From contig JAITDU010000048.1 of assembly GCA_031282405.1 (NCBI GenBank), positions 62,001 to 126,000 of the forward strand: a DNA stretch of 64,000 nucleotides. Direction: 5' to 3'. This DNA is from Coriobacteriales bacterium (GTDB lineage Bacteria; Actinomycetota; Coriobacteriia; Coriobacteriales; UBA8131). Position numbers and translations under genes: made by a program. Position 1 is the stretch's first letter, and each line of letters starts with the position of its first letter. Shown in pieces: positions 37,716 through 51,308 of this stretch. Under the pieces are notes generated by a model, which made no database searches, was not told where the DNA came from, and worked only from the letters and a program-made list of their open reading frames with translations.

Positions 37716-40700
37716 CTAAAGCCGGCTGCGCCTTCTTCTCACCATAAAGATAGTCGCGGCGGCACCAAGGAGTCCCAGCGCCACAAGTACGATCAGGACT
37801 ATCAAAAGAGGGGTAGTCACACCAACGCTGCTGGCGGTTTCTGCACGGGTCGTATCGGCACCTCCAGTAGTGGTAGCATCCATGAATTTATCTGCGTCCT
37901 GGCCCAAAGCGGCCACCTCCGCGTCGAGCGCATCATCATCGAGTAGCTCGGATTCGACAACAGGAGTGTCGAGTGCGTCGGGGGCAGCAGGAGCGGGGCG
38001 CGTAATCGTAAAGGTAGTACTGCCTGTGCCGCTACCATAGTTATCATCAAAACGCAGGTGTAAGGTATGCGCTCCGTCGTCAAGCGTATCGACAAACTCC
38101 GAAGTCAGCGTCACAATAGCGCTGCCCGCAGTGAGCGTACCGGCAAAAACACCGCCCGCCCAAAGCTCATAGCTCGTATCCGACACCTTGACCTGGCGCA
38201 ACTGAACACCGTTAAACAGTACTGCGCTGACGCTGCCAAAATGACCCTTAAAGCGCACGGTCACACCTACGCCGCTATCCGTTATGCCCTCAAGGGCCGA
38301 GTGCTCAATTACCTGGTGGTCGTGGACCAGAACAGAAAGAGCGGCTTCAAAGGCAGCCGTTAGGCTCTCTACAGCGCCTTGGCTCAGGCTCGGGCCATTT
38401 AGGGCCACCTGAGTATCAAACAGGAGTTGATCCAGGGCCGCAAGCGTGTCCTCCGCGTAGTTCTCTCGATAGATACCGAGCACGGCAGTGCGGGCCTGGG
38501 TTATATCCTGGATAAGCTGCGTCCGGATCGTCTCGGAAGGCAGCACCGTTACCGGCACCAAAAAGCGCAGGGGTGTGTAATTGGTCGCATAAGGAGCCTG
38601 GGGAGAAAACACCGCCGTAGCATAATACACACCATCATCTTTGGCGTAGTAGCTTGTGCCAAGAGCATCCTGGCTGGTTTCATAGCCGGGAGCGCCCGGT
38701 ATGAGAGCAGCGTTATCCCACGTAAGTGCACCGGAAATATCCGCATCGTCGGCAACACCCGCAAATAGGTAGCCGAGTCCGTCCAATCCAGAACCGGCAG
38801 CGCTCAAAGCATCGCCAAAGGCAAGGGCGGGAGAGGCACCCGCGTGAGCCACCGTCAGCGCGGCAGGAGTGATGGCCGCTGTCGTATCTGCCGGTTGGGC
38901 GGCCAACTCGTAGTTGTGAGCCCGAGCGCCCATCAGGGCAAAATCAGAGAAGCTCACCGGCACCGCAGAATCGACATCGGCAGAGGCAAAAGTCGCTTGG
39001 GCATGGGAGGTGTCGAGAGAAACGTAGCTCGCGTCTGCTGGAAGTACCTCGTCAAAAACAGCGCTGTCTGCTCCGACAATAGTGGCTCCAAGCGTTTTAT
39101 CGTAGCTCTTATCAGCCGCGCTCACACCGCTTGCAATGACAGGACGCGGTGTTATGCTCCCCGTAACAGTGGGGAGCACAAAGGTATAACTTGAGAACTT
39201 GGGGCTGGAGGCAAGCAGGGCAAAGCCCGTGAGGGTTACCGGCTTGTCTTGCTCCGCGTCAGGGCTTGCAAAAGCGGCGGTGCCCACGGTTAAGACAATC
39301 GCGCCTGATGAGACATCGGCGGCTATCGTTGCCTGAGCAGCTTCTTGGGCCAGGGGAGAGAGCGCGCTTGGCCCCAAACCCTGCTCAAGAGGCTGCATCG
39401 TATCTGCGTCTACTGTCTGAAGCGTCGGTGTGCCCGTCAGAGGCGCAACAAGTGTTCCGTCGTAGACGCGGTCGAAGGAGCCCAAATTGGCAAGGGTAAC
39501 CGCGCGGGGCGCGATGTTCAGCACAACCGAGGCTACGGGGGATTCTCCGTAGTTGGTATCGGCCAGACGCTTGACATAAATTGTTGCGGAACCTGCCGCT
39601 TTGATTAAGACACGGCCGCTGTTCGCGACTTCGGCAACGGATGCGTCTGAACTCCACCACTGCAAAACGCCTGTTCCAGCGGCACCTTGCGCCGTAAGTT
39701 CCAGGGGCAAGTCGCCGTAGGTAGCCGCAATCGGGCTATCCGTGCCGCCCACTTCAGCGTTATCATAAGAGATGGTCGGCGCTGTGGTCGAGGGCGCTTT
39801 GCTCACGGTATAGTTGACGGTTACGCCGTTTTGAGAGGCCGCGAGATATTCGCTGCCCGCATAGCTGGCAGAAAGGTTATGGTTGCCTGCCGCAAGCGTG
39901 ATGGTGGCAGATGCCCGAGCGGCGCCTTCCACTACAGTTACGTCCTCACTGGCAATCAGCACCTTGGGGGTGGCGGAATCACCGTCGGGATCGTCGTAGA
40001 AGTTTACTATAGCGCCCGTTCCTGTGGCTGCGACTGCGCCTGACTGGCCACCGCTAACAGTCGCGGTAAGGGTCACGTTGTCTGTGCCATAGGCCGGCGG
40101 GCTATCGGGAGAAACCGCAAGGCTCAGCGTTGATGCAGCCTTTGTGACCGTAAGCACAATCGTGGTGGTGGCCGGCTCTTCGCTTGTGGGAAGAGACGTG
40201 TTGTAAGCCACACCCCGCGGGTAGTAGGAAACTTTAAAGCTATGGCTGCTGCCGGCGCTCAAGCTGTTCAGGTAGGTCGCCGTAAACGCGATGCCGTCTG
40301 ACGTGAGCGTGTAGTCGTTGCTGGCACCCAAAGTAAGTATAGCGGGCACACTGCCTGACTTTTCTACCGAGGCAACCGTGTTGGCGCTGCTCGCAAGCCC
40401 CAGGCCGACCGAAACGCCTACTGGAGAAGTCTTGGTATAGGAGGCCGATTCTGTAACGGGGCCGTCTGAGTAAATGACGATACCGGCTGAGTTGGCCACA
40501 CGCACATTGCCGGCATTATCGGTAACGCGGGCATAGACGATATATTTACCCGGGGTAGTGAGCGTAAGACTTGCACTGCCGGAAGAAACCGTTGTCCAGT
40601 TTGCGGAGGTATCTGCGATGGCAGCGTCTTCGTTTGCAAAGGCCGCCACGCCTGAGGAAAAGTCGTGTAACAAGTACTCAACTTTTGCAACACCGGAGTG

Positions 40701-43700
40701 CGCATCGGTGTCTGTGATGACAACGGGCGCGCCAGGACTTGCCTTGTAGAAATGAGAGAAGCCGCTGGGCACCGAGAAGTCCAGGCGAGAGATGCCACGC
40801 ACGCTCACTTGTGCGGTGGGTGCCGTTTTGTCAAGCCCGATAGTGGCGCTCTTGACCTCCTCGATATTATCGGCTGCGTCGACCGACCAGTAATGTATCG
40901 TGTGCGTGCCTTCGGCCAGCGGGCTGTTTTCTGCATCAAACAAGGCGCTAAGCACGAATGGTCCCGAGTAGGCCTTCTCTGCGCCTCCATCTACGGTGTA
41001 GCAGGTGGCGACAACCGTGCCCAGCCCACCGGTGGCGGTTACATCGGCATCCGTGGCCGTGAGCGTAACCTTGCCATCTGCGGCAAGCCAGCCGCTCTCA
41101 GGCGTAATGGCTGTCACCGGCGCCACGCCATCGGTGTAGTTAGGTCTAAACACCAGAGGTGTGGCGGAGGTGCTGCCCACGCCGGGGGTGTCCGCCGCTT
41201 CAAGAGCTTCAGCCGTCGGCATCGTGATAACCGCTGTGCTGGTGGTGGGGATAGCGTCCACCGAGGCACCGGCGATCTGCGTCCAGGACTCAAACTTGTA
41301 GCCCTCATTTGGCGTACCCGCCACAAGCGTGACCTGCCGTTCTGCCGCGTAGGCACCGGCTGTCACAGCGGTGTTTTGAGGAATACCATTGGCAGAATGT
41401 ACCTTTGTACCTGTGCCACCCGTGCCGTCAGTAACCTCAAGCGGATAGGTTTTGGTAATGCCCTTAACTTCAAGGCTGCCCTGAGCTATGCTCATACCCG
41501 CGGCATCATTGTCAAAGATAATATGTATAGTATGCGTACCGTTTTCTGTCATCCAGCCGCTGAGTAGACGCAAGGCGAGTTGGTTGGTAAAGTCATCTTT
41601 GTGCACGTGGTCAAATATGTAGGTGCCCGCTCCGCCATCTACGAACTCGTAGTTTGTGCCTACGTCAATGATCTTGCCGTCAAAGTAAACCGTAGCGTTG
41701 GAAGCGTTGTTGTAATCATCACTAAACTCCTTGCTCAGCCTGAATTCTTTGACTGGTGCGCTATAGGCCCCTCCGGCATCTTCTGGATTCAGTATCTGAA
41801 GCGCGGTGTCTTTATCAGTGGGGAAGTTGTTGCCCGAGGTGCCTAAGAAATAGTCCACCAAAGCGATAGCCTTGTCTGTCTTGGTTATTTTGCTTCCCTC
41901 CAACTTAGAGGGCAGAACGCCAAAGCCGGGGATGGACACGCGCACAGAGTAGGAGCCTTGCGCGACACCCGAATCGATCTCAAAGAGTACGCGGTAGGTA
42001 TAGCCCTCGTCTGCGTCCACTTTAACAACACCGTTTATTGTAAGAGCAAGGGCAGGATCGACAACGGGGTTACCCGCTTCGTCCACTTGTTCTATCTTAA
42101 CTTCACCTGCACCGACGCGATTTAGATACCCCATACCATCAGGGTCACTTGTGCCGTACCACACCAATGCATCAGGGCTTATCGGGGATTTTTCGTGATC
42201 GAGCGTAAACTGCAATACGCCGGAAGAGTAACCTTCAATGACAGGGACAATATGGGCTTCTTGAATCGCTCGGGGGATGGTGACTGTTGGGTAGTCATGC
42301 AGGCGCGTATCTTCTGAGTCTGTAGGTGCTGGTGGACGGACATTGCCGTCATGGAGCGTTGATGCTTGAACGGCGTAGGCAGAGATGTTGGTTATACCTG
42401 CCCAGACCTCAATATCGTCTCCGGTCTTATAGATGGCCTCGGCAAGTTCTTGCGAAGTGGTCCCAGAAATACCCTTGGGCACAACGGGGATAGTGTAAGT
42501 TTTGAGATTGTCAGAGACAGTGATGTTATTTACCCCTGTGCGCACGGCAGCACCCGCTACGCGCAAATCTCCTTGCCCCAGCTGGGTGGGATAGGCGAAT
42601 GTGACCTCGACTTCATTGGTAAGTCCGGTTGTAGTATCGATATGAGCCTCAACCGACTCGAACTCGACTTTGGGATGTACCGTAAACCAAACGTCTTGCG
42701 TAGCGGTATCTGCGTTATCATCGTTGTCCTCATACGTTATCGTTATTTGAGCATGGTAGGTATGAGAAGAAACCGTTTTGGTGCTGCTGTCAAAGGTGGC
42801 CTCCAGCTCATCTCCTGGTTGGATATACCACTCGGTTGAATTATTTTCATGTGAGATAACAAAGGCATCGCCACCCTCTCCTATGTTACTTGCGAAGGTA
42901 ACGCCTGTTATCGTAAAGGCGGGATTGAGTTTTACGAGCTGCGGGCTGGTATCTGAGCCATCACCTAAGCCAGCAGACAAAAGCTCGTAACCTTCAAGCT
43001 GGGCATTAAAGCGTACCTCGTCAAAGGCATGTACGGTAGCGGTAACAAAGTCAGAGGCAAAAGAGCTGGCTGTAGCCTGGATACGAATGCGATAGCGGCC
43101 ACCATCCAAGTCACTGATGCCTGCTGCAGCGTCAAATACTATCCAGGCACTTTCAACACCAGTAGAAGATACCGAACAATACTCATAAGTCTTAGAGACA
43201 TCCGGATCAGTGATGCTGATAGTGCCTTTGTCATTGGCAGCTGCAGGCGAGGTAACACTTACCTGCGGGGTACCAGGGCGCTCAGGCACATAGATGTAGT
43301 AGATCTCTGAGTCTACGTACGCTTCGGCGGCGGCGGCCATGCGCTGCACGCCTAACCAATAACCAAAGGTGCTAAAGGGGATATGGTTGTAGTAGCCTGT
43401 AAAATCACCCGTAGCGTCAGTAAGTGTGGCAGCCGAGACAGCACTGCCAAACGTGCCGCCTTCGCCATGTTGGAAGCGATAGGTCTCCCCTGCCACCAGA
43501 TCGACTATATGTGCATTGGCAAAGTCTATGGCTGCTTCAGCGGGAGTAGCTTTAGGTACCGGCTTATAGACAACTACGCCATCAACCTTAGAGTCTTCGT
43601 TTGTAACAATGTAGATGTGCCCATCTGCTGCCGTCCAGGTGCCGCCTGTCATGGTCACGGTGGCTGCTTCGTTGTTGGCGATTACTTTTATGGGAACAAG

Positions 43701-46700
43701 CCAAACTCTGCCGTCATGGTCACCTGCAATGGAGGTAGCACCGTTCTTTCCTGCCGCACCGCTCACACTCACGCCGGTACCGGCAAATTCGACAAAGCCG
43801 GCCACAGGCTTATCAAAGGTAATGAGGATGCCACTTGAGGCTACCTTGCCGTTGGTGCCGCCTACCTGCTCGGCGGTAAAGGACACTTCAAGCGGTGTTA
43901 TAACCGCGGTGGCTACGTAGGCAGCTTTGTTCCCGGCGGCGTCTACTACCACGACGTTAAACCAGTAGGGGGTGTCGGCGGTAAGGCCGGTAACTGCGTA
44001 GGTCAGCGTGTCTACGCCTGTTTCTTCTTCAACGCCGTCGCCATCTTGGTTCAGCGGTGTAAGCGTACCAGCTTCGATGCCATCCAATGTGGCGATAGTA
44101 TTGCTTATACCTTGTGCCTGGTAGATGTAGTAGGTAAGTTCACTGTCTTGTGGGAAAGCATCAGTGGCCTTTGTCCAGGTAAGGGTAACGCCTGTCTCGC
44201 TTACATCAGAACTCGTGATAAGGCCTTGTGCTCCCGCAACAGGTGGAGTGGTTTCTGCCTGAATGGTCAGGGCGACCGTAATCGCGGCGGAGTCGGCGTA
44301 GTCCTCGTCGCCTGCGCGATACACGCTTATCTCAGTTGCGGCATCTGCTGCGCCGTCGCCCGTAAAGGTGACAGTGCCGGTGGCGTTGGTAATGCCGCCA
44401 CCACTGGTAGAGCCTGCGACCGTAGCAACATCCTCGTCGCTACTCTCCCACACAAAGCCACCCGTACCCTCACCACCCGAGGCGGTGAGCGTATAGTCGC
44501 CCGCCTCGCGCGCCAGCGAAACCGCACCGGCCACAAGCCCCGCGCCAGAAACGCTCGGCGCTGCCTGTGGGGCCTTGCTCACCACAACCGTAAAGGTCGT
44601 GGTAGCGGGAGCTTCGTTCGTGTCGGTTTCGGCCACGCCCCGGTTATCCGGCTTGTAGCTTTCCCCCAGCGGGTTGTAGCTCACGGTAAAGGTATGGGTA
44701 CCCGCCTTAAGCCCCGTCAGGTAGCTGCCTTTAAGCACAAGGGCATTGCCGGAGATGGAGTAGTCCGTATCCAGCGCAAAGCTGGTTGCAGCGTTGTCGC
44801 GCCCCGCGCCCTGAGCGCTGCCGCTCGCAGAGGTGTTAACAAGCGGACTGTCGTCGCCTGGAGCCACATAGCTCGTGCGCTCAAGCCCGGCGATCGTGTT
44901 GCCCTGCAGCGTCACATAGATGTTTTGATCCACGCTGGTAAAGCGCGTGATGTTCACACTTTGCGTGTCCGGCACGCTGTCGGTGTAGATGACGACGCCG
45001 TCTTTATAGGTGGTGAAGTTGCCCGCCTTATCTACCACCTTCACATACAGCGCGAACTTCGCGTTGGGCGCGGCGCTCAGCGAGGAGCCGTAGGTCTGCC
45101 ACACCCCCTCCAGAGCTGATGCGCTCAGCTCTGCGCTGGGGTTGTAGTCACGATAATACGAGACCGTCTCCACATCTGAGCCACCCGTATCAGTAGATGC
45201 TATGGTAATAGTAGTAGTGTCTTTGAAGAACAGGCCAAAGGTGATGGAATTCAGGAACTCCCGGAAACCATCGCTGCCGTATTGCACCGTCGCCGTGGGA
45301 GCCGCGCGGTCGATCCCAAAGGTCAGGGTCTTTTGCTGGGATATCTCATAGCGCGCAATGGCACCCTGTCCACTACCTACCGCATCGCCCACACGCCGCA
45401 CAAAGAAGCTCACCGTGCCGTCTGTCACAGCACTGGAAGCCACAACGACAGGTTCGGTAGTCCACGGGCCCGCAGCGCTCGCGCTTGCATCCATGCTCAA
45501 AGCATAGCCCGAAACTGCCGTAATAACAAAGTCGTCCTTTGTCCAGCCCGCGTTGAGCGGTGTGGAGGTAAAGTGCACGCCTTCCTGCGGCTCAAAGCCG
45601 GCGGTAATCGAAGCGGCATTCGTAATGGACATAGCCGGCTGCATGAGCGTATAGTTGGCCGCCGCGCTGCCGCTGAGCGAGAAGTCGCCCGTACACTCCA
45701 CGGTCTTACCCGTAGCTATGGACGCATCTGCAAAGGCGTAGCTAACGCCCGAGGTAACCAGGCTCACGTTGTCGCCGGCAACAGCACCGCTGAGCACAGG
45801 CGCGCCCGTAACCGCAACGCTTGTGAGCCCGTCAAAGTGCTTGCTCGCAAAGAACAGGCCGCTCATATCAACACTTACCAGCCGCGCAGAGACGAGGATA
45901 TCCACGCCCACGTGTAAGACAGGTACGTTGTTGTCCATATCGGAGGGGGTAAAGGTCGCCAGATGGGTCTGGGTGCCCACGGTACCCACGCGCGTCAGGG
46001 CCGGGCTTGCGGCCTCCCAACTCCAGGTGCCGGGGACATTATTGGTGCCGCCGGAGCTCAAAAAGCCCGCCAGGCTCACACCAGAAAGCATAGTACCGTA
46101 AGGTGCCGTAAGCCCTGATGGAGCCGAAACATCGGGCGCGTTTTTCGCGATGGTCAAGACGAATTCCGCAGAGTCAGAGCCCGCCAGCCAGTCGCTATCA
46201 CTCGCGCGTTGTGCCACGATGATAACCTGTCCGGCACCGTAAACGGTCACGGTGCCGTCGGCAGCAACCGTAGCAACGCTGTCTTTGCCAGCGGTGCGCC
46301 TGAAGCTTATCGCACCGGTACCCTCGCCGCCTGTGGCCTGCAGGGTAAAGGTGTACGGGCCGGCTTTAACGGCCTTTTGCCCGGGATCGGTGATAACAAC
46401 CGCCGAGGTCTGCGCGCGCTTTACCACGCTAACGGTGGCGACGGCGGAGCGCTTCTGGGCAGTCTTCTCGCCATTTACGGATGTGTTCGTATTGGTAACC
46501 ACGCAGTAGTAATACGTCGTTGCCACCGCGTTGCGCTCGGGCGTATAGCTCGCATCGGTCGCACCAACTATCGCCTGGCCGCCCGTGCCGTCAGGCGCGG
46601 TGGCCGTATACCACTGATAAGAAAGCGCGCCGCCACTGGCCGCGTCGGGGGCCTGGGCGCTTACGGATAAGCTGAGCTCGTGAGCCGGGTCGGCAGCTGC

Positions 46701-49700
46701 CGTATAGACCTCGCCCCCCTGCGGCTGTACGCCGATGAGGGGTGTGGCAGCGTGGGTGGTGGGAGCGATGACGACCGTAAGCGTAGCGCTCAGACCGCCG
46801 GCGTAACTGTGATAGCCAGGGGTATCTCCCAGGGTCGCAACGAACGTATAGCTGCCCGCCACCTCAGTGTCATAGGCACCCTGTAGTGTCCAGGCGCTCA
46901 CGGGGTAGGCGACGGTGCCGTTTGTGCAGGTGGCCGTAACAGTGGGATGGAGCGCCAGCAACGTGGCGGCCACGTTCTCCGCCTCAAAGCCCGAGGTCAC
47001 GTATCCCACGTTGCCGCCGGGTACTTCAAAGGGTAGAAAACCCGTTACCGCGTTGGGGCTCACGGCAAAGCTTACATCGACGGAGGCTGCGATGCCGTTT
47101 TGCCCACTGACCACAACCGTGGCGGTATAGCTGCCCGGCACAAGCCCCGCCTTGGGGCGCACACTAAAGGGAGTGGCGCTTTCGTTTTGCGCGACAATGG
47201 TGGGGATAGTCGCCGTTGCGCCGGCAACACCGGCGGCCACGAGTTCAAAGGCCGAGGGATCCGAGCCGCCCAGTACCACGTTCATTTCTGCGGTAGGCTT
47301 ACGTCCGATATTGGTGATGGTGATGTCGTGGGCCGCAACGACTTGCGCGCCGTTCGCGCTTAAGCCCACCGCATAGCCGTACTGCGCCTCGGCAAAGGTA
47401 AGCGTGCCCTGCGCATCCAACAAGATTCCGTAGGGTAGTTCGTTGACGATGACGGTGAGCGTGGGAGCAAGGCTTGAGGTATGCGTCAGGTTTGAGCCGA
47501 AGGAGCTCAGATCAAGCGTGGCTGCAAAGGTATAGCTGCCCTCGGTATCTGGATTAAAGAGCGCGCCGGTATTCGTCCACGCGCTAATAGGCACTTCTAT
47601 CACAGCGCCACTGTCAAGGTTCGCGCTCACGGTTTTCACGCCCGTAAAAGTGTTCTCTGGGGCATCTGGCGCGGTACCATTTAATAATATATTAGCAATT
47701 TCGTCTACCGTATCGCGATCCACTCCCAGTTCGTGCGCCTTACCCGCAATCCACGAGTCCAAGGCAGAGAAGCCCGTGATGGTAGCCGCGCTCACGGTAA
47801 AGGACAACAGATAGCTTGCCAAGAAGGGCTGCGTGTGCCCGCCCTGGCCGCTTTGCGTGCCCGATACGGTAAGGGTTGCCGTGTACGTTCCGGCAGCAAG
47901 CCCCGCGTTGGGACTCACGATAATATCGGACGTACTGGCCTGGGGAGCGAGGCTTGCCAGGTGCAGCTGCGAGACGCTGAACGCGCCGGGGTTATCACCC
48001 GAAAGCGCCACCGAAAGCGCCCCCGTAGGTTGATTGCCGGTGTTCGCTACCGTAAGCGCGTGAGAAGGAGCGGCAGCATAGCCCCACGTGCGCCCAGCAA
48101 AGCTGTAGGTGGCATCCTGGGCGGTATCCAGCGAGATGCCCCAGGTTGGCTCTGTGCTGCCGGTCGCGATTGTCAGCGGCTGGGCAAAGCTCGCAAAGTT
48201 GCCTTGCTCGCCGGTAGTGGCCTTGTAGCGCAGACGGTAGTTGGAACCCGGAGCGAGGTTATAAAGCCGGTGCGCGGCTGCGTCAAAGTTCGCGAGCGCG
48301 GCGATATCGGAGACCCATGTCAAACCACCGTTATTGGAATACTCCATGCTCTCGGCCCACACGCCCTCGATGCTGCCATCGGCAAAGCCGATAAAACTCT
48401 CGGCATACGCGGTGGCGGCTGGTGCGACAGGCCGCGTCTTTATCACCAGGTTTGCCGCATCAGAAGAAAGCAGCGTGTTCGTATTGGACTTGATGAGAGA
48501 AAGCGGCGCGGTTGCACCGGTGCCCCGCCCAAACCAGGAACTGTCGATGCTGATAGTACCCTGGCTGGTTGTGCGTTGGGCAATGCCGTCTACGAGGTAA
48601 TCGACGGAGCCCACGAGCCCGGTTATCTGCTCGTGAGCGTAGTCTATCTGCGGCACAGGCTTTTTCTCGGTAACCGTCACCTGCACGGTGGCCGTCGCGG
48701 TGTGCGTAATTCCCTTGCCCTCGGGGTGGTAGGTAACAGAAAGTGTAGCGGTATGCACGCCAATCGCGAGGTTGTCCTTGGGGCGTATGCTAATGCCCAT
48801 GTTTTGCTCGCCGGCCTCAAGCGTCGTGGTGCCGGCCGGCGCAACGAGTTCAAAGTCGGTCGTGTTATCGAGCGTAACTTCTGCGGCGGCAAACGAGGCG
48901 GAGATATTGCCCGTGGCCGTAAGCGTTGCGGCGCGGGCAGCAACGGACGCGCCCTGTTCGATACGCCCCGAGCCGTCTGCGCCAAAGACCGGCGCGGTGA
49001 GGTTCAGGCTGACCGCCCTGTCATCAACAATGACCGTAGCGGGCGTGCTGGCAAAAGCCTCGGAGCCGGACGTTGTTACGGCCTTATAGCGCACGTAATA
49101 CGTCCCCGCTGAGACGGACAGGTAGGTGTCGCTGCCCTCAATCGTAACCGCGGTGACCGCAGTAAACGGCCCTGTGGCCGAGGTCGCGTATTCCATCTCT
49201 GTGGTAACACCATATATCTTGTTTGCGTAGCCGGACAGGCCCTGCGGCGCGGCTGGGCGGGCCGGGATAACGACATCGGCCGGTGCGCTGTCGGCCGTTG
49301 TGGCGTTGCCGGCGGTAACGACACGTACCGTCTGTCCGTGCCAGTCATAGGCATCACTGCCCGTGGCTGCAAGCGCTATCTGGCTGTTGGCGTTGGAGGT
49401 GCGCGAGGTCCCGTTGACAAGATAGGCGGTGTTCGCGGCCGGCAGCACGAGCGCATCTGCCGCGTAGTTGATGCTTACCTGCGGTGTGGCGGCGCGCGCG
49501 ATGGTAGAAAACGTGAACGTCTGAGCGCTGGCCTGCGCCAAGTTCTCCGTATTCGTAAAGTCGCTGACCTCTACCTGATAGGAAGCCCCGTACTCAATGC
49601 CGGAAAGGGGCAGGTTCAGTATGTTATGTCCGGCGTTCCAACGCGTGTCGTTCGCAGTGATGGCGCCACCGCTGAGTGCGGGTGCGTCACTGCCGCCGGT

Positions 49701-51174
49701 GGAGGTCTTGGTAATGGTAACGTTGCCGGGATCTGAGATGTCAATTTCTTGTGAGAAGGACAGCGAAAGCGAGCGGGTAGACGCCGGAGGAAGGTTGGTA
49801 GCTCCATCACTCGGAGCGGTGAGCGCAGCGACGGGGCGGGGTTGATCGGCCCAGGTATAGGCGCTGAGGGCCGAGATGTTGCCCGAGATATCGACGGAGC
49901 GCGCCTGGACGACGGTGTGGATATCGGGGTTATCGATAAAAGGCGTACGCGCCGTGGCTGTAAGGTCGAGCTGTCCTGCGCCATCTCCGTCCAAAACCAC
50001 GTAGTCTTTCCAGCCGTCGTTAGTTGACGCATCTATCCAGTTTGCGCCGCTGTTGCTTGAGATGCGGTACTGGTATTTAGCCACACTCTTGTCGCCGTCG
50101 TCGGTAGAATAGCCCACCGTAAAGGTGTTGCCCACCTGCGTGATGACGGGAGCTGAGGGGGCGGTGAAGTCCTCGATGATGGGAATCGAGGGATCGATAC
50201 CTGTACCGTCTGCGCTGAATGCGAGTCCCGTAGGCACATAGTTGTTCAGGACGTAGAACTGACGCAGATCGTATTCCTGCGCAACCGCCCCAGACGCGGC
50301 AGTGAATCCGATGTAGTACTCATTCCCAATGATGGATTCGATGTCTGCGGCGACGGCCAAAGTAGCCGTCGAGGGCTTGGTCGGCTTGGAGCTGACAAAA
50401 AACTTCAGGGAATTGCTCTTCGATTCATAATCCACCCAGGAATAGCAGTGGATGTCCGTTACATATTGCGTAAAAGCGCTGTCGACATATGAGAGCGCAC
50501 GCGTAGTCACTCCATCACCATCGGAATTTCCAGCGATTTCAGAAAAAAGATTTCCCTGCTGGGCGTAACCCGCGAAGGGAACTTTCTGATTCGAAGTATT
50601 GTTGTAAGTATCAACCTTGAAGGCGACGGATCTGCCGAAGGGGCCGCTCGGGCCGCCCTCATAGCCGAGCGAACCGCTTCCTTTTGTGACGCCGTTCGTG
50701 TCCGCCGCGATGATAAAGGACCAACCGTCGGCGAGACTCGCCAAATTCGCCGATTTCGCTCCCATGTACATATCAAACATAGCAGAGAAACCCGTTTCGG
50801 AGTAAATTCTACGAGAAAGGAACGCGGAACCGTACTTCCATGTCGGATTAGTTCCGAGAGCATTGGAGATGAGTCTGATGTAGCCGGGAGTATCGCCGCT
50901 CGCCGCGATGACGGCGGAATCGTTGCCCGTCAGCTTCATGGTCTTATCGCCGAGCGTCGAGGCGTTAGAGGACGAGAACGACGGTGCGATAAAGTAGGCG
51001 CCCACGGTGCTGGCGGGCTGCTCCTGCGCTGCGGGCGGCGCTTCTTCAGCTTGGGCTAAAGGTAGGCTGGTGAGCCCCCCCCCCCGGCACCAATGCCAAG
51101 GCGAGCAACAGGGCCATACCGGCCCTCCCCGCCCGCGCCAAAACAGAGCCGTTTTGCTTGTTATATTGCTTCAT
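37716..51174 (-). CDS. Giant (~4,485 aa if frame restored) lectin/Ig-like surface protein; frameshifted at a poly-G tract
   Basis: RBS GGAGG + ATG (51172-51174) + signal peptide MKQYNKQNGSVLARAGRAGMALLLALALVPGGG in one frame. The rest (LTSLPLAQAEEAPPAAQEQ..., L-type-lectin-like N-domain, MBG/YDG-, Ig-, FIVAR-like repeats, C-terminal TM + RRRRSRL) is in another frame, offset by the G11 tract at 51075-51085. Confidence 0.85.
51075..51085 (-). repeat. Poly-G (11 G on minus strand) homopolymer within the signal-peptide region
   Basis: Plus strand tgag-ccccccccccc-ggcacc, 11 C counted at 51075-51085. Confidence 0.95.
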
Positions 51175-51308
51175 GCTAATCCTCCACCCAATAATCAAAT
51201 CTAAACTATGCGCCACCCCATAAAACATACGCCCGGAGAAGCGCCCGAGTATCCCTTCCGTGCGGCCTTCTTTCCGCAATCTTTAGAATACCTCAGTACA
51301 CAACAGAG

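What the first reader, a model, noticed from the sequence alone, without database searches (positions are those of the whole stretch)
51060..51174. Poly-G phase-variation switch inside the signal peptide of a giant surface protein, captured in the OFF frame
Seen directly: GGAGG RBS, ATG and a signal-peptide core (MKQYNKQNGSVLARAGRAGMALLLALALVPGGG) are followed by 11 consecutive G. With 11 G the frame runs to AHQPTFSPS-stop. With 10 or 13 G it reads VPGGGLTSLPLAQA|EEAPPAAQEQPAS, a good signal-peptidase site, and continues into the ~4,430-aa ORF. The ORF caller therefore splits it into 77 aa and 4,429 aa. Established: slipped-strand mispairing at long poly-G/C tracts is a classic contingency mechanism for surface proteins, best known in epsilonproteobacteria and Neisseria. 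Inference: this locus is an ON/OFF switch in a high-GC Gram-positive.
Basis: partly seen in the sequence, partly recalled or inferred. Interest (0 to 1): 0.9.

Follow-up and report, generated by a model that had tools for sequence, protein, structure and literature searches.

The report
Poly-G switch, one of dozens genome-wide
A run of 11 G's sits in the export signal of a giant surface protein of an uncultured Coriobacteriales bacterium and probably switches the protein on and off by slippage; the same genome carries about 60 such runs, over half of them at the start of a large family of type IV pilin (hair-like appendage) genes, so this looks like a whole-cell system for randomly changing surface and pili.

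Summary
On the minus strand, GGAGGA, ATG (51174) and a signal-peptide core are followed by exactly 11 G (51085..51075). With 11 G translation stops after 42 codons. With 7, 10 or 13 G it runs on for about 4,485 aa. The ORF beyond the tract is intact, so this is no decayed gene.

The genome (2.0 Mb MAG) has 62 G runs of at least 9 nt, where about 3 are expected, and the length distribution is bimodal. Some 33 of the tracts share one module: RBS, ATG, 17-22 nt, G9-12, a 38-149-codon leader, then a type IV prepilin (GFTLVELIVV...). The tract-to-pilin distance is 2 mod 3 in 24 of 25 copies although it varies from 116 to 449 nt. All three frame states occur, and most copies are OFF. A second species of the genus and members of two other genera have the same arrangement with different flanks.

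Best reading: slipped-strand phase variation of a surface repertoire. Poly-G switches are known in Actinobacteria (Bifidobacterium, Gardnerella). A large phase-variable type IV pilin family appears undescribed in the papers I could search. Length heterogeneity was not testable because no reads were available.

The parts
51180..51185 (-). Shine-Dalgarno sequence GGAGGA
   Evidence: read directly
51086..51174 (-). ATG and n-/h-region of the signal peptide (MKQYNKQNGSVLARAGRAGMALLLALALVP), before the tract
51075..51085 (-). G11 homopolymer, the putative slippage switch; open lengths are 7, 10, 13; 11 reads OFF
   Evidence: next longest G/C run in the window is 6 nt
51046..51174 (-). 42-aa OFF product (ends ...GGGAHQPTFSPS, stop)
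37716..51074 (-). Body of the giant surface protein in the ON frame (rest of the signal peptide LTSLPLAQA|EEAPP..., 4,452 codons without a stop)
50274..50870 (-). N-terminal legume/L-type lectin-like domain of the giant protein
   Evidence: Pfam PF00139 and PF18483, residues 64-265 of P0001
37719..37817 (-). C-terminal transmembrane helix and basic tail (...IVLIVLVALGLLGAAATIFMVRRRRSRL); no LPXTG seen
   Evidence: read from the translation

Best explanation
The G11 tract is a contingency (phase-variation) switch. Slipped-strand mispairing during replication adds or removes G's. At 7, 10 or 13 G a Sec signal peptide is completed and the roughly 4,485-aa lectin-domain surface protein is made; at other lengths only a peptide of about 40 aa is made. 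It is one element of a genome-wide set. About 62 poly-G tracts lie mostly near the start of surface or cell-envelope genes, above all in a family of about 33 type IV prepilin genes, each with its own promoter-like upstream sequence, RBS, ATG and poly-G tract inside the prepilin leader. Independent slipping of many tracts would give each cell a different combination of pilins and adhesins. Shown here: the anatomy, the excess of tracts, the frame conservation, the mixture of frame states, the presence of a type IV pilus machine, and the same layout in three genera. Inferred: that lengths vary within a population, the switching rate, and the benefit (phage escape or attachment choice).
For: Observation confirmed. 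The ORF past the tract is intact, with 4,452 stop-free codons (composition-based log10 P about -67), so a permanently OFF gene is unlikely. 62 tracts of at least 9 nt, bimodal lengths. 33 copies of the pilin module. Pilin frame open from tract to GFTLVEL in 24/25 copies in G000, 17/18 in G001, 17/18 in G020, 7/7 in G021 and 4/4 in G007, with almost none open in the other frames; distance 2 mod 3 in 24/25 (G000), 16/18 (G001) and 16/18 (G020). In G000 leaders all 44 indels are multiples of 3 and position 3 is the most variable; in G001 53 of 70 indels are. Frame states 0/1/2 = 14/30/19, and paralogues with nearly equal flanks differ in tract length (7 of 9 pairs). PilB, PilT and PilC genes and a prepilin peptidase are present. 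No MutS_V match in G000, G001 or G020. Further tracts interrupt adhesins, a LicC/LicA-like fusion, a mannose-1-P guanylyltransferase and a molybdoenzyme. Proven precedent in Bifidobacterium breve: a G-tract between the Sec-signal ORF and the LPXTG ORF of a pilus gene (PMC9187656).
Against: No read-level or strain-level length data. G000 is an 88%-complete MAG, and short-read counts of 10-11 G are unreliable (PMC9187656 describes read failure beyond G-tracts). The giant's only ortholog lacks a tract at the homologous position. Prepilin leaders of 40-150 aa are unusually long, and 21 of 69 copies have an internal ATG/GTG/TTG with some RBS-like sequence. About 20 of the 65 tracts lie outside recognisable long ORFs.
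Confidence: 0.82

Rival explanations
1. Assembly or sequencing error: the true tract is uniformly 10 G and the gene is simply always ON.
For: One-base errors in long G runs are common in short-read assemblies; 14 of 65 tracts lie within 300 bp of a contig end where 1.1 are expected, so assembly is troubled near them (the shared pilin sequence also explains this).
Against: Even G10 is far beyond chance. Tracts recur with conserved flanks in 33 module copies and in four other MAGs, and all three frame states occur, which one systematic error would not give.
Confidence: 0.1
2. Programmed slippage of RNA polymerase or the ribosome on the G run makes a constant share of full-length protein from an out-of-frame gene; the DNA length does not need to change.
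For: Long G runs are slippage-prone for polymerases, so a low level of transcript slippage may add to the effect (established knowledge).
Against: A fixed slip direction would select one frame offset. Both OFF frames and the ON frame are populated (30, 19 and 14 of 63) and lengths run from 7 to 18.
Confidence: 0.06
3. The gene is a frameshifted pseudogene or a silent donor, and tracts mainly mark recombination among paralogues.
For: Pilin leaders share blocks between copies (e.g. ...PICPPAQSRVAYAKSETQTRK in several), and a few copies are truncated (L058, L069:10937) or out of frame (L043).
Against: The giant ORF is intact over 4,452 codons and most pilin ORFs are intact after the tract. Each copy keeps its own RBS, ATG and upstream region, unlike promoterless pilS cassettes. 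The giant is single-copy.
Confidence: 0.05

Closest known systems
Bifidobacterium breve UCC2003 sortase-dependent pilus loci bbr_0113 and bbr_1889 (PMC9187656)
   Same: Actinobacterial gut commensal; poly-G inside a coding region between the Sec signal and the rest of a surface protein; ON/OFF by replication slippage
   Different: Two LPXTG pilus operons per genome with length mixtures shown experimentally; here about 62 tracts, mostly type IV pilins, and no reads
Neisseria opa gene family (background knowledge)
   Same: Multigene family of surface proteins, each copy switched independently by a repeat in the secretion-signal coding sequence
   Different: Opa uses pentamer repeats and outer-membrane adhesins; here poly-G and type IV prepilins in a Gram-positive order
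Neisseria pilE/pilS and pilC variation (background knowledge)
   Same: Variation of type IV pili; pilC is switched by poly-G
   Different: pilE varies by gene conversion from silent cassettes; here many full-length pilin genes each carry their own start and tract
Genome-wide variable homopolymer tracts in Gardnerella (PMC11287997)
   Same: Actinobacteria with tens of long G/C tracts per genome linked to phase variation
   Different: There, about 70% of G/C tracts lie upstream of genes; here the main class lies inside codons of a pilin leader
Haemophilus licA phase variation (background knowledge)
   Same: One tract here interrupts a LicC/LicA-like nucleotidyltransferase-choline kinase fusion (L066)
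   Different: licA uses a tetranucleotide repeat; here G9

Membership tests
Slipped-strand (SSR) phase-variable gene | Long homopolymer in or just before the coding region, beyond chance | tested here: met
   G11; 62 runs of at least 9 nt in the genome against about 3 expected
Slipped-strand (SSR) phase-variable gene | Length decides reading frame; intact ORF in one register | tested here: met
   7/10/13 G open for about 4,485 aa, others stop within 37-43 aa
Slipped-strand (SSR) phase-variable gene | Tract length varies between cells or strains | not testable with these tools
   No reads or second strain; only paralogues compared: 7 of 9 near-identical pairs differ in length
Slipped-strand (SSR) phase-variable gene | Expression follows tract length | not testable with these tools
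   needs reporter or proteome
Sec-exported surface protein | Signal peptide with cleavage site; surface-type domains; membrane or wall anchor | tested here: met
   ON-frame ...LAQA|EEAPP by eye, lectin, YDG, CBM_X2 domains, C-terminal TM and RRRR tail; no signal-peptide predictor was available
Type IV pilin (multigene family outside the window) | Class III signal G|FTLVE and N-terminal methylation motif with long alpha-1 helix | tested here: met
   PF07963 over cut-off in 5 of 5 tested, TIGR02532, AF2 helix 4-57 at pLDDT 94.7, profile match to PilE1 8pfb E=2.5e-13
Type IV pilin (multigene family outside the window) | C-terminal domain with known pilin fold | tested here: inconclusive
   No significant Foldseek match in PDB
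Type IV pilus system | PilB, PilT, PilC and prepilin peptidase encoded | tested here: met
   L222: PilC-, PilM-like, PilB- and PilT-family genes; A24 peptidase at C46

The most novel reading that the evidence does not exclude
Several genera of uncultured Coriobacteriales carry a large type IV pilin repertoire (tens of full-length genes per genome) in which each gene is independently switched by a poly-G tract inside an unusually long prepilin leader, together with phase-variable adhesins (including the giant of this window) and glycan or phosphocholine enzymes: a combinatorial pilus-switching system not previously described.
Probability: 0.6. Interest if true: 0.8.

Novelty: new variant of a known kind. 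Interest (0 to 1): 0.72.

Why it matters
Type IV pili are common phage receptors and adhesion and motility organelles (established knowledge). Dozens of independently switching full-length pilin genes in uncultured Actinobacteria would be a route to pilus diversity different from Neisserial gene conversion. It also suggests that phage or niche pressure, not only adaptive immunity, can drive surface repertoires. It makes clear, cheap tests possible from existing reads.

Tried and rejected
Tracts as chance or GC effect: rejected. Family genomes with few pilins mostly have 0-5 tracts, though Spearman over all 33 is only 0.41 (0.50 without G005; Pearson 0.93 without G005). G005 (164 tracts, no such pilins) and G032 (12) break the link; sampling G005 showed many tracts in junk-like contig ends and a few before signal-peptide proteins, so G005 was not used as support. 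Conserved tract in the giant's ortholog: not found; the G020 ortholog (its contig length equals that of JAISEO010000058.1) has a plain signal peptide and its contig ends before the start. The sister species G001 has no ortholog. Fold search of the pilin model against PDB: no significant match. Host of the MAG: I suspect a termite or other insect gut from the record name, but a literature search did not confirm it; treat as unknown. Literature searches for phase variation or pilins in Coriobacteria found nothing relevant; only open-licence PMC papers are held.

Full report
Observation. The described features are all present. On the minus strand a GGAGGA precedes ATG at 51174, 89 nt lead to a run of exactly 11 G (51085-51075), and the frame then stops after 42 codons. 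Lengths of 7, 10 and 13 G open a 4,484-4,486-codon frame; 6, 8, 9, 11, 12, 14 and 15 do not. The 77-aa figure is the same stop counted from an upstream TTG. No other G or C run in the window exceeds 6 nt. The body beyond the tract has 4,452 codons without a stop, while the other two frames hold 168 and 199 stops. The protein has a legume/L-type lectin-like N-terminal domain, YDG, CBM_X2 and fn3-like domains and a C-terminal membrane helix with a basic tail. It lies downstream of infC and apparently rpmI and rplT; only infC was identified by Pfam, the other two were recognised by eye.

Genome context. The window is part of contig 1 of a 2.0-Mb, 57-contig, 88%-complete MAG. The nearest named record is a Coriobacteriales MAG, Gx485_bin20. 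The genome has 65 G/C runs of at least 8 nt and 52 of at least 10. In the 0.56 Mb that hold them the lengths are bimodal: 59 of 6, 2 of 7, 3 of 8, 10 of 9, 28 of 10, 13 of 11. An order-3 Markov model gives 0.86 runs of at least 9 in that sequence, so about 3 for the genome; 62 are seen.

The main family. 33 tracts share one module: an upstream element, an RBS (GGAGAGGGA), ATG, a short stretch such as AAGTCGAAAATTACGCC(GT), G9-12, CATCACCGTCTAG..., and then, 116-449 nt on, a type IV prepilin GFTLVELIVVIVILGILAAIAIPALTGYISKAEDK with a variable C-terminal part. Some copies are cut off by contig ends, and the C26 end and C32 start are probably one locus seen twice. Both out-of-frame readings meet a stop soon after the tract. 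The tract-to-pilin distance is 2 mod 3 in 24 of 25 copies although it takes 19 different values, and the frame is open in 24 of 25. In aligned G000 leaders all 44 indels are multiples of three and codon position 3 varies most. So the leader is translated from the tract side. Tested members carry the N-methylation motif above its cut-off. An AlphaFold model built on a 43-sequence alignment has a helix at residues 4-57 and mean pLDDT 94.7. The profile finds solved type IV pilins over alpha-1. No PDB fold match for the model was significant. PilC-, PilM-like, PilB- and PilT-family genes lie together, and a prepilin peptidase is present.

State of the switches. Counting from the best RBS-ATG, 14 copies over five genomes are in frame, 30 are off by one and 19 by two. 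In the window's genus 7 of 41 are ON (P = 0.017 against one third, treating copies as independent and the assembled lengths as right, which may not hold). That all three states occur speaks against a fixed programmed slip. Near-identical paralogue pairs differ in tract length in 7 of 9 cases.

Relatives. G001 (same genus) has 59 tracts of at least 10 nt and 46 pilin matches; G020 has 58 and 24, G021 16 and 11, G007 28 and 8. In these genomes the tract sits near the start of pilin genes but with different flanks (atttcgcc[G]ctcatagctTAG; ccccaaaatc[G]ctcatagcc; attgcagc[G]cgtcacagg). Pilins with a short ordinary leader (for example MKSLVKRQQELRKNGKK|GFTLVEL) have no tract. The pilin motif is much rarer in the rest of the family. 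Poly-G tracts as such are more widespread in the order (0-45 in most genomes); most of those were not examined.

Other tract genes in G000: two adhesins with Flg_new/PMP repeats (L040 OFF, L070 ON), a >2,168-aa surface protein (L065:6509, ON), a thioester-domain protein with a C tract in its signal peptide (L051), a NTP transferase-choline kinase fusion resembling LicC/LicA (L066), a mannose-1-phosphate guanylyltransferase (L057) and a molybdopterin oxidoreductase (L036). This is the usual company of contingency loci. Roughly a third of the tracts lie outside recognisable long ORFs and were not explained. MutS domain V was not found in G000, G001 or G020 (all incomplete), but was in G007.

Conclusion. 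For the window locus, slipped-strand ON/OFF switching is the best explanation (0.82). It is not proven, because tract-length mixtures were not observable. As a single locus it is a new member of a known kind, with a close actinobacterial precedent in B. breve (PMC9187656) and a genome-scale one in Gardnerella (PMC11287997). As part of a large independently switching type IV pilin repertoire with the tract inside the prepilin leader, it is a new variant.

Noticed in passing
G000 genome-wide (L032-L075): About 33 type IV prepilin genes with poly-G in a 40-150-aa leader, most read OFF; leaders share mosaic blocks, suggesting recombination between copies.
   Followed up: yes
L037:186, L038:7142, L054:6754, L065:7104: A second recurrent tract context ...CTTAACCACATTAAAACT[G8-10]CAATGACGG, mostly outside long ORFs; its function is unknown (promoter element or mobile repeat?).
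   Followed up: no
L066:6397-8272: LicC/LicA-like nucleotidyltransferase-choline kinase fusion interrupted by G9 near its 5' end, reading OFF; possible phase-variable phosphocholine decoration.
   Followed up: partly
L036:924-3324: Molybdopterin oxidoreductase with RBS-ATG-22 nt-G10 at its start: a possibly phase-variable metabolic enzyme.
   Followed up: partly
G000 contig ends (e.g. C26 end, C32 start, C45 end): 14 of 65 tracts lie within 300 bp of a contig end (1.1 expected); may reflect length variants, repeats or poor reads.
   Followed up: partly
L061:7021-7057: Adjacent poly-C and poly-G runs of 15 and 10 with a short spacer that could form a hairpin in an intergenic region.
   Followed up: no
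G043, G117 and f2 genomes: Other Coriobacteriales genomes with 30-264 poly-G tracts; not examined.
   Followed up: no
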